From Microbacterium sp. AZCO (GTDB lineage: Bacteria > Actinomycetota > Actinomycetes > Actinomycetales > Microbacteriaceae): a DNA stretch of 64,000 bases. Shown here one piece after another: positions 53,209-56,623 of the stretch. The stretch spans positions 4,092,001 through 4,156,000 of the forward strand of contig NZ_CP154857.1 of NCBI RefSeq assembly GCF_039614715.1, in the 5' to 3' direction. Both the position numbers and the translations under genes were made by a program. The notes below the pieces were generated by a model. The model was given only the letters and a program-made list of their open reading frames with translations. It did no database searches and was not told where the DNA came from. The first letter of the stretch is position 1, and each line of letters starts with the position of its first letter.

Positions 53209-53880
53209 TCAGGAGAGTTCGACGATGGTGTCGTTGACGTCGGCGGCGTCCGCATCCCAGAGGTCTGCGAAGGCGTCGGCGAGGGTCTGCTCGAGTCCGT
53301 CGAGGGCCTTCACGCGGAACACGACGGAGGCCGCTGTCAGCGGGCGCCCGGCGTCCCGTGCGTCCTTCGCGAAGCCCTGGGCGACGGCGCGCGTCCAGGC
53401 CTCGCTCGCCGCCTTGATCGCGGCGTAGTTCGCCCCGCCGGCGAGCGGCCGCGCGACGGCGGTCGACGAGACCATCGCGAAGCGTCCGGCCGGGGACGCG
53501 CGCAGGTCGTCGTCGAACGCGCGCGTGACGTGGCGCAGGGCTGTGAGCGAGCGCTCGAGGAAGCGGTAGTCGTCGTCGCTCTGTCCGGCGAGACCGCCGC
53601 CGCCGCGCCAGCCGCCGACGAGATGCAGGATGCCGTCGACCCGGCCGACCAGGCTGTGCGTGCGATCTGCGAGCCCTCGCACGGAGGTCTCGTCGGTGAG
53701 GTCGCAGGTCTGGGTCATGAGGCGCGGCAGTGCGTCCGCGAGCTCGGCGAGCTTGTCCGGGTCGCGGCCCGCCACCACGACCCTCGCGCCGCGATCGAGC
53801 AGCGTTCGTGCGGCGACGGCGCCCGCGGCGCTCGTCCCTCCCGCGAGCAGCACGAGTCGGCCGTGCAGTGCTGACGTCAT
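53209..53880 (-). CDS. SDR family protein
   Basis: 223 residues. The N-terminal motif LLAGGTSAAGAVAARTLLDR is a divergent SDR cofactor loop (GGTSxxG), then VVVAGRDPDKLAEL, LHLVGGWRGGGGL, and an active-site-like SSTAVARPLAGGANYAAIKAA (YxxxK). The short length and the loop suggest an atypical SDR, possibly with weak catalytic function. Substrate unknown. The start is 53 bp from the IS110 left end. Confidence 0.85.
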   Translation of the reverse strand: MTSALHGRLVLLAGGTSAAGAVAARTLLDRGARVVVAGRDPDKLAELADALPRLMTQTCDLTDETSVRGLADRTHSLVGRVDGILHLVGGWRGGGGLAGQSDDDYRFLERSLTALRHVTRAFDDDLRASPAGRFAMVSSTAVARPLAGGANYAAIKAASEAWTRAVAQGFAKDARDAGRPLTAASVVFRVKALDGLEQTLADAFADLWDADAADVNDTIVELS

Positions 53881-53900
53881 GGGTTCATCCTTCCATCGGC

Positions 53901-53929
53901 TTCCGGGTGTCGGAGGGGCGGACTAGCCT
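53901..53929 (+). promoter_or_regulatory. Probable original MFS promoter, left of the IS110 element
   Basis: TTCCGG (53901-53906), 17-bp spacer, TAGCCT (53924-53929). If the IS110 element is removed at the inferred junctions, this -10 lies about 9 nt before the MFS ATG, close to the leaderless arrangement used elsewhere in the window. In the present sequence it points into the IS element. Confidence 0.55.
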
Positions 53930-53950
53930 CGCATCAGTGTCAGGGTGACA

Positions 53951-54125
53951 GTGCCGCGTTGCGGTGGTTGGATCCTGATCACCTGGCGTCTGGCTCTTAG
54001 CCTCGCTGCCGCCTTCGGGTTGGCGTGCATGCGTTTTGCCGGCGTCTGGTGTGATGGACCGGCCGGCGTGACTTGATAGGAGCGTGGCATCGCCCCCCGA
54101 CTGAGGTTTGTCCGCCGACCGGCCC
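53951..54125 (+). ncRNA. IS110 bridge RNA (target loop and donor loop)
   Basis: About 175 nt by inspection. A 5' hairpin (CCGC-GTT-GCGG, 53954-53964) is followed by the target loop: closing stem ATCAC (53978-53982)/GTGAT (54051-54055) plus CTGGC/GCCGG, left guide TAGCCTCGC (53998-54006, identical to the left flank 53924-53932), and right guide CATGCGTTT (54028-54036, complementary to AAACGCATG at 55238-55246). The donor loop has closing stem GGCCGGCG (54061-54068)/CGCCGACCGGCC (54113-54124), left guide TTGATAGGAG (to 54082; RE ends ATAGGAG), and right guide ACTGA (54100-54104; complement of TCAGT at 53934). Exact transcript ends are not known. Confidence 0.8.
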
Positions 54126-54163
54126 AACCTGTCCCATTCGGATTCAGGAAGGAGACGATTCCC

Positions 54164-55222
54164 ATGGTGATCGTCATCGGCGCGGATGTCCACAAGGCCA
54201 CACACACCTTCGTTGCGGTCGACGAAGTCGGCCGCAGACTCGGCGAGAAGACCGTGAGAGCCACGACTGGCGGCCACGAGGCGGCGTTGCGGTGGGCCAG
54301 GCGCGAGCTTCCCGGCGAGTTGCGGTGGGGTATCGAGGACTGCCGTCACCTGTCGGCGCGGCTCGAGCGTGACCTGCTCGCGGCGGGGCAGGACGTGGTG
54401 CGGGTGCCGCCGAAGCTGATGGCCCAGTCCCGCGCATCCAGCCGGGAGCGGGGCAAGTCCGACCCGATCGACGCGATGGCCGTGGCCCGCGCGGTGCTGC
54501 GTGAGCCCGGTCTCCCGGTCGCGTCGCACGACGAGTCGACCCGCGAACTGAAGCTGCTGGTCGACCGCAGAGAAGACCTGGTCAGCGAAAGGACCCGTCA
54601 GATCAACCGGCTCCGCTGGCATCTGCACGAACTGGATCCTGAGTTCGATGTTCCGGTGAAGGGGTTCGCGATCGGCAAGCAACGGCGACGGGTCGCTGAC
54701 TGGCTGGACGGCCGCACCGGCCTGGTCGCTGAGCTGGCGCGTGACATCCTCGCCGATATCGGGCAGGGCAGCATCCGGATCGACGATCTCGAGAAGAGGA
54801 TCACCGCGCTGGTGCAGGACCGCTACCGGCACCTTCTCGCGATCCCCGGCTGCGGGCCCCTCACCGCCGCGAAGATCGCCGGGGAGACCGCGAACGTCAA
54901 CCGGTTCCGGTCCGAAGCATGCTTCGCGATGAACGCAGGCGTCGCACCGCTCCCGGTCTGGTCAGGGAACACCCGCGGCAGAGTCCGGATGAGCCGCACC
55001 GGCAATCGACAACTCAACGCAGCCCTTCACCGCATCGCAGTCACCCAGATCCGCCTCGACGGCCTCGGCCGCGCGTACTACCGCAAACGCCTCGACCACG
55101 GCGACTCCACCGTCGAAGCCCTCCGCTGCCTGAAACGCCGCCTCTGCCGCATCGTGTTCCACGCCCTTCACGCCGACCAACGACCCGCCCACATTCCCTC
55201 CAGCCTCCCCCTCACGGCCTGA
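54164..55222 (+). CDS. IS110 family transposase (DEDD/serine recombinase)
   Basis: 352 residues. The N-terminal RuvC-like DEDD domain has IGADVHKATHTFVAV (first Asp), RWGIEDCRHL (Glu) and RGKSDPIDAMAVARAV (Asp pair); a coiled linker follows. The C-terminal Transposase_20 domain has LLAIPGCGPLTAAKIAGE and GVAPLPVWSGNTRGRVRMSR, where the Ser of WSG is the likely nucleophile. It uses the bridge RNA to pair donor and target DNA. AGGAAGGAG precedes the ATG. The frame is intact, so the element may be active. Confidence 0.95.
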   Translation: MVIVIGADVHKATHTFVAVDEVGRRLGEKTVRATTGGHEAALRWARRELPGELRWGIEDCRHLSARLERDLLAAGQDVVRVPPKLMAQSRASSRERGKSDPIDAMAVARAVLREPGLPVASHDESTRELKLLVDRREDLVSERTRQINRLRWHLHELDPEFDVPVKGFAIGKQRRRVADWLDGRTGLVAELARDILADIGQGSIRIDDLEKRITALVQDRYRHLLAIPGCGPLTAAKIAGETANVNRFRSEACFAMNAGVAPLPVWSGNTRGRVRMSRTGNRQLNAALHRIAVTQIRLDGLGRAYYRKRLDHGDSTVEALRCLKRRLCRIVFHALHADQRPAHIPSSLPLTA

Positions 55223-55243
55223 AACTTGACATAGGAGAAACGC

Positions 55244-56623
55244 ATGGCCGACGAGACCGGTGCCTCGGACCAGCCGACGACAGACGTGATCGCTCCGCCC
55301 GGCGGCATGCGCGTTTTCGTGCAGGTGCTCGTCAACACGGCGGTCGCCAACATCACGACGAGCTTCCTGTGGTTCGCCCTCACGTTCTGGGCCTATCTCG
55401 AGACGAAGTCGGTCCTCGCGACGGGCGTCATCGGCGGCGTCTACATGCTCCTGATCGCACTGTTCGGGATGCTGTTCGGCACGCTCGTCGACCGTCACCG
55501 CAAGCACCGCGTCATGGTGCTGTCGGGCTTCGTGACGCTCGCGGCGTTCCTCGTCGCCGGCGCGCTGTGGGTCGCGCTCGGCGAGCAGACGCTCATCGAC
55601 CTCGGCCAGCCCTGGTTCTGGATCTTCTCCGGCATCATCCTCGTGGGCGCGGTGGTCGAGAACCTCCGCAGCATCGCGCTGTCGACGACGGTGACGCTGC
55701 TCGTCCCCGTCGAGCGGCACGCCAACGCCAACGGCCTCGTCGGCACGGTGCAGGGCATGGCCTTCATGGTCACGAGCATCTTCAGCGGCCTCGCGATCGG
55801 CATCCTCGGCATGGGGTGGACCCTCGCGATCGCGCTCTTCCTGACGATCGCCGCCCTCGTGCACCTGCTCTTCCTCCGCATCCCCGAGAGTCGTCCCGCG
55901 ACGACCGAGAAGCTGCCGCTCATCGACCTGCGCGGCAGTGTGCGGGCGGTCGCGGCCGTCTCCGGGCTCTTCGCCCTCATCGTCTTCTCGACCCTCAACA
56001 ACCTCATCGGCGGCGTGTACATGGCCCTCATGGACCCGTACGGCCTCACGCTCTTCCCCGTCGAGTGGTGGGGGATCGTGCTGGGTGTGACGGCGACCGG
56101 GTTCATCATCGGCGGCGCACTCGTGGCGAAGTTCGGCCTCGGCCGCAATCCGATCCGCACGATGCTCGTCTTCGTCATCGCGATGGGCGTGCTCGGTGCG
56201 CTCTTCACGATCCGCGAGTGGTGGTGGCTGTACGCCCTCGGCATCTGGCTGTACATGTGCATCATCCCGGTCGTCGAGGCATCGGAGCAGACGGTCATCC
56301 AGAAGGTGGTGCCGTACCGCACGCAGGGCCGCGTGTTCGGCTTCGCCCAGGCCTTCGAGGCTGCCGCGGCGCCCATCACGGCGTTCCTCATCGCTCCGAT
56401 CGCGCAGTTCTGGGTCATCCCGTACATGAATTCCGATGCGGGTCAGGAGACGTGGGGCTGGCTGCTGGGCGACGGCGAGGCGCGCGGCATCGCGCTCATC
56501 TTCCTCGTCTCGGGCCTCGTGATGGTCGTGCTGGCGCTCCTCGCCTTCACGACGAAGGCGTACCGCACGCTGTCGGCCGAGTACGAGACAGCGGAGCCGG
56601 CCCCGGCCGACCCCGCTGTCTGA
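55244..56623 (+). CDS. MFS transporter
   Basis: 459 residues, 12 predicted helices. The loop 2-3 motif is FGTLVDRHRKHRVMVLSG, and VQGMAFMVTSIFSGLAIGILG and QGRVFGFAQAFEAAAAP match drug-efflux-type MFS permeases (MFS_3-like). The substrate is unknown. The ATG at 55244 is 21 bp after the transposase stop; AGGAG (55233-55237) 6 nt upstream belongs to the IS right end. Expression now probably depends on transcription from the IS. Confidence 0.9.
   Translation: MADETGASDQPTTDVIAPPGGMRVFVQVLVNTAVANITTSFLWFALTFWAYLETKSVLATGVIGGVYMLLIALFGMLFGTLVDRHRKHRVMVLSGFVTLAAFLVAGALWVALGEQTLIDLGQPWFWIFSGIILVGAVVENLRSIALSTTVTLLVPVERHANANGLVGTVQGMAFMVTSIFSGLAIGILGMGWTLAIALFLTIAALVHLLFLRIPESRPATTEKLPLIDLRGSVRAVAAVSGLFALIVFSTLNNLIGGVYMALMDPYGLTLFPVEWWGIVLGVTATGFIIGGALVAKFGLGRNPIRTMLVFVIAMGVLGALFTIREWWWLYALGIWLYMCIIPVVEASEQTVIQKVVPYRTQGRVFGFAQAFEAAAAPITAFLIAPIAQFWVIPYMNSDAGQETWGWLLGDGEARGIALIFLVSGLVMVVLALLAFTTKAYRTLSAEYETAEPAPADPAV

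What the first reader, a model, noticed from the sequence alone, without database searches (positions are those of the whole stretch)
53934..54163. Complete IS110 bridge RNA readable from sequence, with both guide loops matched
The non-coding left end of this IS110 element contains, in order, a 5' hairpin, a loop whose two short segments match the two genomic flanks (TAGCCTCGC identical to the left flank top strand; CATGCGTTT complementary to AAACGCATG of the right flank), and a second loop whose segments match the element's own ends (TTGATAGGAG versus RE CATAGGAG; ACTGA complementary to LE TCAGT). Each loop is closed by a complementary stem. The order target loop then donor loop, and the strand sense of left and right guides, are those described for IS621. 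This is a specific, apparently undescribed bridge RNA/recombinase pair with an intact transposase.
Basis: partly seen in the sequence, partly recalled or inferred. Interest (0 to 1): 0.92.

Follow-up and report, generated by a model that had tools for sequence, protein, structure and literature searches.

The report
Jumping gene aimed at gene starts
A small bacterial jumping gene appears to carry a guide RNA that spells out a promoter's -10 box and a start codon, so that it lands exactly between the promoter and the first codon of genes whose messages have no leader, and its own right end brings a ribosome-binding site that could keep the hit gene working.

Summary
The finding is real: 53935-55240 is an intact IS110-group element with a two-loop bridge RNA (about 53947-54129). 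The genome holds three identical copies, all at TAGCCTC-n(2-3)-core-|element|-core-CATG. Correction: AAA of the "right flank" AAACGCATG belongs to the element.

New: of 31 group-A insertion sites with readable flanks, 30 read, once joined, TANNNT, 5-8 nt (21 of 30: 6 nt), ATG/GTG, the signature of a leaderless gene start; the miss, L083, has another guide. In those 30 (22 guides) left guides agree with their own sites at 231 of 270 bases (permuted guides: mean 164, maximum 199 in 20,000). Uninserted sister-species sites show the junction. A written prediction on gene starts held for 11 of 12 new elements; its guide clause held strictly for 5 of 11, tied for 6. Sixteen RNAs support the fold by covariation.

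Inferred: the orphaned host promoter transcribes bridge RNA and recombinase, and the right end's AGGAG, 6 nt before the start codon in 29 of 30, makes the leaderless gene Shine-Dalgarno-led. Nearest precedent: IS900, Shine-Dalgarno plus start codon, opposite orientation. New variant of a known kind.

The parts
53924..53929 (+). host -10 box TAGCCT, left behind by the insertion
   Evidence: TANNNT 5-8 nt before the RTG of the joined site in 30 of 31 group-A sites, miss L083
53924..53932 (+). left target (LT), TAGCCTCGC
   Evidence: 9 of 9 identical to the left target guide
53933..53934 (+). left core dinucleotide AT
   Evidence: second base T in 29 of the 30 fitting sites
53935..54163 (+). left end, non-coding
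   Evidence: identical in three genomic copies
53941..53946 (+). -10-like CAGGGT; 17 nt after TTGACA of the right end in the predicted circle
   Evidence: spacing 17 in 21 of 21 loci, with the core drawn as NN
53947..54129 (+). bridge RNA as modelled (ends not measured)
   Evidence: consensus fold and pair counts on alignment A2
53954..53964 (+). 5' hairpin CCGC-GTT-GCGG
   Evidence: read from sequence; poorly aligned in A2 and not among the pairs counted
53966..53971 (+). outer stem, pairs with 54124-54129
   Evidence: 100% of cells paired, 5 of 6 pairs never vary
53980..53994 (+). target-loop stem 5' side, pairs with 54038-54051
   Evidence: 14 pairs, 6 with changes on both sides
53998..54006 (+). 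left target guide TAGCCTCGC
   Evidence: guide-site covariation
54008..54024 (+). apical hairpin of the target loop
   Evidence: 7 pairs, 4 with changes on both sides
54028..54036 (+). right target guide CATG, core complement CG, handshake guide TTT
54059..54072 (+). donor-loop stem 5' side, pairs with 54110-54122
   Evidence: 99.5% of cells paired but 11 of 12 pairs never vary
54076..54082 (+). left donor guide ATAGGAG
   Evidence: identical to the right end 55231-55237
54100..54105 (+). right donor guide ACTGAG, complementary to CTCAGT (core CT plus left end)
54164..55222 (+). IS110 recombinase, 352 aa, intact
   Evidence: PF01548, PF02371; NF033542; E58, D100, D103, S267 aligned with IS621
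55226..55231 (+). TTGACA, -35-like box in the right end
   Evidence: 21 of 21 loci
55231..55240 (+). right end / left donor ATAGGAG-AAA; contains AGGAG (55233-55237), a Shine-Dalgarno-like site 6 nt before the ATG
   Evidence: AGGAG-N6-RTG in 29 of the 30 fitting sites, N7 in one
55241..55242 (+). right core dinucleotide CG
   Evidence: first base C in 29 of the 30 fitting sites
55243..55246 (+). right target CATG, holding the start codon
55244..56623 (+). interrupted gene: MFS transporter, 459 aa; start codon kept, own -10 box cut off
   Evidence: PF07690; 11 of 11 uninserted orthologous sites examined have TANNNT 6-7 nt before RTG

Best explanation
53935-55240 is an IS110-group insertion sequence whose bridge RNA is programmed for leaderless gene starts. 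[quoted passage not shown] the right target guide (CATG plus core) pairs with the top strand at the start codon; the donor loop reads the element's own ends. Recombination at the core puts the element, running with the gene, between -10 box and start codon. Shown by sequence comparison: ends, fold, guide-target covariation, the nature of the target, the uninserted sites. Inferred: that the RNA is made and guides the recombinase; that in the circle TTGACA-N17-CAGGGT drives it; that in the chromosome the orphaned host -10 box drives it, starting at the A of CAGTG; and that read-through plus the right end's AGGAG lets the interrupted gene be translated as a Shine-Dalgarno-led gene.
For: Three identical copies, three TAGCCTC sites. 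30 of 31 group-A sites have TANNNT 5-8 nt before RTG (spacing 6 in 21, 7 in 7, 5 and 8 once each), against 18 of 3339 RTG triplets in the window; no locus held that meets the end criterion was left out of this tally other than duplicates, L017 and L065. In the 30: guide-site identity 231 of 270, permutation mean 164, maximum 199 of 20,000; the three variable -10 positions 83 of 90, mean 36. Uninserted sites: copy-1 gene 11 of 11, L011 gene 5 of 8, copy-2 gene 4 of 6 with TANNNT 6-7 nt before the start codon; the L011 site is uninserted in G003 as TAGGGTCGC-CC-CATG. Hold-out: gene-start prediction 11 of 12. Fold: 99.4% of cells paired, 11 pairs changed on both sides (shuffles 4.3), slid versions 23-48% paired. 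Handshake bases TTT/TAT/TTG tend to go with element ends AAA/ATA/CAA (57 of 66 over 22 elements, permutation mean 49, 0 of 20,000 as high). Of 18 ORFs starting at the RTG that were scanned, 16 have a Pfam match at E <= 0.001, 14 of them above Pfam's cut-off.
Against: No expression, TSS or transposition data. One hold-out element (L083) has group-A ends but another target, and L094/L095 (outside the stated criterion) another still, so the target is a habit of a clade, not fixed. One by one the guides are less telling than in sum: in the first 19 sites the element's own guide is the strictly best of 22 in 9, tied in 5 and beaten in 5; in the hold-out strictly best in 5 and tied in 6 of 11. L018 matches its guide at only 4 of 9. 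L009 opens only a 24-codon ORF; L020's ATG overlaps another IS110. Of three GTG sites only L004 has a changed right guide. Related elements with other targets also end in GGAG, so the Shine-Dalgarno may be incidental. Sites from one genome are not independent (30 sites from 20 genomes or records, my count).
Confidence: 0.85

Rival explanations
1. Ordinary IS110 element with an arbitrary target; the overlap with promoters and start codons is incidental to a target word.
For: Known IS110 elements each have their own target; L083, L094 and L095 have unrelated targets.
Against: The word differs between elements (22 guides at the fitting sites) and only T1, A2 and T6 stay fixed throughout, exactly the -10 consensus; spacing to RTG is that of leaderless genes; 16 of 18 scanned ORFs have a Pfam match.
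Confidence: 0.06
2. Survivorship: insertion is broader, and only insertions at leaderless starts, where the brought Shine-Dalgarno rescues the gene, persist.
For: The right end supplies AGGAG 6 nt before the start codon in 29 of 30; only persisting insertions are seen.
Against: The guides themselves spell TANNNT and CATG and in sum match their own sites, so targeting explains the sites; survivorship may add to it.
Confidence: 0.07
3. The non-coding left end is an attenuator or regulatory leader of the recombinase gene and the flank matches are fortuitous.
For: It lies upstream of the gene; single-sequence folding is not unusual.
Against: Guide-flank covariation and base-pair covariation.
Confidence: 0.02

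Closest known systems
IS621 and other IS110-group bridge-RNA elements (PMC11208160: abstract, five sections and passages read; PMC11208158: two sections and passages read)
   Same: Recombinase domains and catalytic residues; RNA in the left end; target loop then donor loop; strand sense of the guides; core dinucleotide with T second (here on the left side); circle promoter split between the ends; handshake guides.
   Different: Target is a -10 box plus start codon of leaderless genes (IS621: REP elements). About 7 guide bases are kept on the left with 1-4 bases between them and the core, and AAA/ATA lies between the donor guide match and the core, where IS621 pairs into the core. Left and right cores often differ.
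IS900 of Mycobacterium avium subsp. paratuberculosis (passages of PMC8141618)
   Same: IS110 family, actinobacterial; target motif CATGNNNNNNTCTCCTT reads, backwards, as Shine-Dalgarno plus start codon (my reading); a 1997 title in that paper's reference list says IS900 targets translation initiation signals.
   Different: IS900 meets a Shine-Dalgarno, in the opposite orientation; this element meets the -10 box of leaderless genes, runs with the gene and brings a Shine-Dalgarno-like site of its own. No bridge RNA of IS900 was examined here.
seekRNA elements ISEc11 and ISEc21 (PMC11187229; passages and one section read)
   Same: RNA from the non-coding end matches both target strands; natural reprogramming among relatives.
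   Different: Other targets; most IS1111 members carry the RNA at the right end.

Membership tests
IS110 family, IS110 group | DEDD RuvC-like N-terminal domain and Transposase_20 C-terminal domain | tested here: met
   PF01548 E 3.3e-29, PF02371 E 1e-21; NF033542 203.9 bits, cut-off 140
IS110 family, IS110 group | catalytic D/E/D/D and serine | tested here: met
   E58, D100, D103, S267 align with IS621; D8 aligns with ISCro4; IS621 residue numbers, with an offset of 2 to the chain inferred by me
IS110 family, IS110 group | long left and short right non-coding end | tested here: met
   229 and 18 bases
IS110 family, IS110 group | bridge RNA with target and donor loops in the left end | tested here: met
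   comparative fold and covariation, weak for the donor stem, which hardly varies; expression not testable here
IS110 family, IS110 group | target guides covary with the target | tested here: met
   in sum; singly less clear
IS110 family, IS110 group | promoter across the ends of the circle | tested here: inconclusive
   TTGACA-N17-[CG]AGNNT in 21 of 21, but the -10 box lacks its first T, and no circle was seen
IS110 family, IS110 group | RNA binds the recombinase and directs recombination | not testable with these tools
   needs purified parts
IS1111 group | bridge RNA in a long right end | tested here: not met
   the right end is 18 bases and the RNA is in the left end
IS1111 group | long subterminal inverted repeats (7-17 bp) | not tested
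   no repeat search was run on the ends
IS900-like targeting of translation signals | Shine-Dalgarno in the target, opposite orientation | tested here: not met
   30 of 31 sites hold TANNNT where it would lie, and the RTG reads in the element's direction
Rfam families | match to a curated RNA family | tested here: not met
   0 matches in the window at gathering score

The most novel reading that the evidence does not exclude
A clade of RNA-guided transposons has evolved a semi-degenerate 'gene-start' programme: the RNA fixes T1, A2 and T6 of the -10 box and the start codon and lets the rest drift to follow particular promoters. The pairing span (about -12 to +4) is roughly the stretch that RNA polymerase melts (recalled), so the RNP may use the open bubble. 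Insertion rewires rather than breaks: the host promoter becomes the promoter of the bridge RNA and recombinase, and the host gene passes from leaderless to Shine-Dalgarno translation in an element-host operon.
Probability: 0.35. Interest if true: 0.9.

Novelty: new variant of a known kind. Interest (0 to 1): 0.77.

Why it matters
It ties an RNA-guided recombinase to a functional signal, the leaderless gene start, instead of to a repeat or an arbitrary word, and gives a natural series of 22 guides with known targets in which reprogramming can be followed base by base. It suggests a way for a mobile element to live in promoters with little harm, gives a natural leaderless-to-leadered switch to study translation, and supplies a recombinase lineage with a looser geometry between guide and core.

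Tried and rejected
Single-sequence folding did not help. Rfam has no model that matches. A genome pattern with AAAC taken as target (TAGNNTN{3,10}AAACNCATG) gave 0 hits in the own genome, an early sign that AAA is the element's; the corrected pattern TAGCCTCN4CATG gave one other site, by my reading of L077 also at a gene-like start. The viral-contig scan found no relative; genome contigs gave 4. A protein search found 7869 relatives at E <= 1e-60 among the 7999 candidates scored, 120 listed; it gives no context and was not used in any count. Fourteen plasmid stretches were fetched; apart from L020 none of those displayed showed the leaderless target by eye (which failed on three: L026, L028, L029); their own targets were not worked out and they are not in the counts. 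Rows left out of the tally: L065 (no left flank), L017 (left neighbour is another right end), and duplicates of counted loci (L001-L003, L014, L034-L038); one search applied the end criterion to all 96 loci held and found no other. Hold-out L082, L084-L086 and L094-L096 did not meet the written criterion; L083 met it and failed, and is absent from the guide and core statistics because it has no such site (its guide does not read TANNNT). Genome searches score only some candidates per genome, so further copies may have been missed. Uninserted sites were examined only for the 25 matching loci that came with DNA and were not copies of the inserted sites; many more matches were listed without DNA. 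In one search the L066 row was misread by the script (it took CATG in the apical loop); its handshake guide is TTT, so 81 of 90 there understates by three. I considered a target-site duplication of the core and dropped it: left and right cores differ in most copies.

Full report
Check of the observation. The genome holds three copies, the 1304 bp compared being identical in all. Their flanks are TAGCCTCGC-AT|CAGTG...AAA-CG|CATG (window copy), TAGCCTCGA-CT|CAGTG...AAA-CA|CATG and TAGCCTCATC-CT|CAGTG...AAA-CT|CATG.

Boundaries. Sister species that lack the element fix the ends. The site of relative L011 (TAGGGTCGC-CT|...|AAA-CC-CATG) is uninserted in genome G003 as TAGGGTCGC-CC-CATG, and the window site corresponds to TAGCCTCGC-CC-CATG in G222 and G210. 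So ATAGGAGAAA is the element's right end, the core is the two bases before CAGTG and before CATG, and AAA was wrongly counted as flank. In the L011 case the core now on the right is the one seen in the uninserted species, and the left core differs; that is one example only.

What the target is. From protein searches of 1 own, 366 genus, 398 family and 396 order genomes (the sets overlap), genome contigs and plasmids, 21 group-A loci were tabulated and 19 with a usable left flank were counted. All 19 have TANNNT 5-8 nt before an RTG once the flanks are joined. The published signature of bacterial leaderless genes is TANNNT around 12 bp before the start codon, counted from its first T (PMC3160421, passages), which is a 6-nt spacer; in M. 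tuberculosis a TANNNT motif lies 7-12 bp upstream of 73% of primary TSSs (PMC3898074, passages). By contrast 18 of 3339 RTG triplets in the window have TANNNT at 5-8 nt. Uninserted orthologous sites, for the 25 loci with DNA in hand: 11 of 11 for the window copy's gene, 5 of 8 for the L011 gene, 4 of 6 for the copy-2 gene; in the five misses a Shine-Dalgarno-like word or an unaligned start was found. Of the 30 fitting sites, 29 open an ORF of at least 106 codons at the RTG, one of these (L020) overlapping another IS110; the thirtieth (L009) opens 24.

Hold-out test. Eleven have TANNNT 6-7 nt before an RTG that opens 151-488 codons, one (L083) does not. The third clause, own guide better than the others', held strictly in 5 of the 11 and as a tie in 6. 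L083's left guide GTAGGCGCATT resembles its own flank GTAGGCACATC, and L094/L095, outside the criterion, have AAACCGACT in both guide and flank: the RNA logic holds, the programme changed.

Guides. Over the 30 fitting sites with 22 distinct guides, left guide and site agree at 231 of 270 bases (permuting guides: mean 164, maximum 199, 0 of 20,000 as high), at 83 of 90 for the three middle bases of the -10 box (mean 36), and by position at 30, 30, 27, 30, 26, 30, 28, 19 and 11 of 30. All 22 of these guides read TANNNT; L083's does not. Since T1, A2 and T6 are shared, a single guide often fits several sites: in the first 19 sites the own guide is strictly best in 9, tied in 5, beaten in 5. The worst row is L018, 4 of 9. 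The right guide reads CATG; in L004, where the gene starts with GTG, it reads CACG, but the two other GTG sites (L066, L092) keep CATG. The three bases after its core complement tend to follow the element's own last three bases (TTT-AAA, TAT-ATA, TTG-CAA), as the handshake guides of IS621 do (PMC11208158, section read). Left cores end in T in 29 of 30, right cores begin with C in 29 of 30; in IS621 and relatives T at the second core position is almost invariant.

Fold. RNAalifold on 16 RNAs finds, unprompted, the outer stem, target-loop stem, apical hairpin and donor-loop stem, with the target guides in the loop. For 42 pairs, after I removed six weak inner pairs of the donor loop (three of which touch the left donor guide), 99.4% of cells pair; 11 pairs change on both sides (shuffles 4.3 +/- 1.5) and slid controls pair 23-48%. 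The shuffles do not remove relatedness, and 11 of 12 donor-stem pairs never vary.

Family. A tree of 35 recombinases sets the 14 group-A rows apart from groups B and C with 100/100 support, but 8 mycobacterial plasmid rows with other left ends nest among them (midpoint root), so the habit seems to have been left as well as kept.

How it probably works. Steps 1-3 are read from sequence, steps 4-6 are inference. (1) Left target guide on the -10 box, right target guide on the start codon. (2) Donor guides on ATAGGAG and CTCAGT. (3) Crossover at the core, element running with the gene. (4) In the circle TTGACA-N17-CAGGGT forms a promoter. (5) In the chromosome the host -10 box lies 6 nt before the A of CAGTG, so the host promoter would start an RNA at the element's second base and run through bridge RNA and recombinase. 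(6) The simple scan finds no terminator-like site in 53700-55500, the recombinase stops 21 nt before the gene's ATG, and AGGAG lies 6 nt before it; read-through would give a Shine-Dalgarno-led message for a gene that was leaderless. Since elements with other targets also end in GGAG, this last point may be a lucky by-product.

Novelty. The held main text of PMC11208160 contains neither 'leaderless' nor 'start codon'; in PMC11187229 the one 'start codon' concerns curation of transposase sequences. A library search for IS110 with leaderless gave 6 papers, none about IS110 targeting by title and start of abstract; further searches are. PMC12500396 (passages) reports an IS110 element, ISKrh6, at three places in a Kocuria genome without working out its target. 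Supplementary files were not open to me, so a target logo of this kind could sit in one of them. IS900 is the nearest precedent. I file this as a new variant of the IS110 bridge-RNA system.

Source. L005 (Microbacterium sp. AK031) has the same printed flanks and ends as L014 of a genome in the window's own genus, so the window is probably Microbacterium.

Noticed in passing
L015, L019, L070, L071, L073, L006, L085, L086 (L016: right side only): A sister group of IS110 elements looks inserted at the orfA/orfB boundary of IS3-family elements: left flanks of L015 and L019 end in RANEILK..ASAFF and match HTH_Tnp_1, the right flank of L015 matches HTH_21; the other loci look alike by eye, with guides resembling TTTCTTCG. 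An RNA-guided IS that may prey on another IS at its frameshift region.
   Followed up: partly
L091, L093, L094, L095 (genome G1286): One genome holds elements with group-A-like ends and two left-guide types: leaderless starts (L091, L093) and AAACCGACT followed by CAATRTTTGG (L094, L095). A possible natural case of retargeting.
   Followed up: no
L017, around 200: The right end of one copy abuts the left end of the next as ATAGGAG-AAA-CT|CAGTG, like the predicted circle junction.
   Followed up: partly
L012, left end: The first 24 bp of the left end are tandemly duplicated, and this is the only counted site with a 5-nt spacer.
   Followed up: no
L005: Copy with a shortened recombinase gene, still open (774 instead of 1059 bp), but with bridge RNA and ends present: possibly moved in trans.
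   Followed up: no
L009, downstream of the element: The start codon hit by copy 3 opens only 24 codons; about 78 bp on begins an ORF that by my reading looks like an NAD/FAD oxidoreductase: perhaps a leaderless upstream peptide.
   Followed up: no
   Followed up: partly
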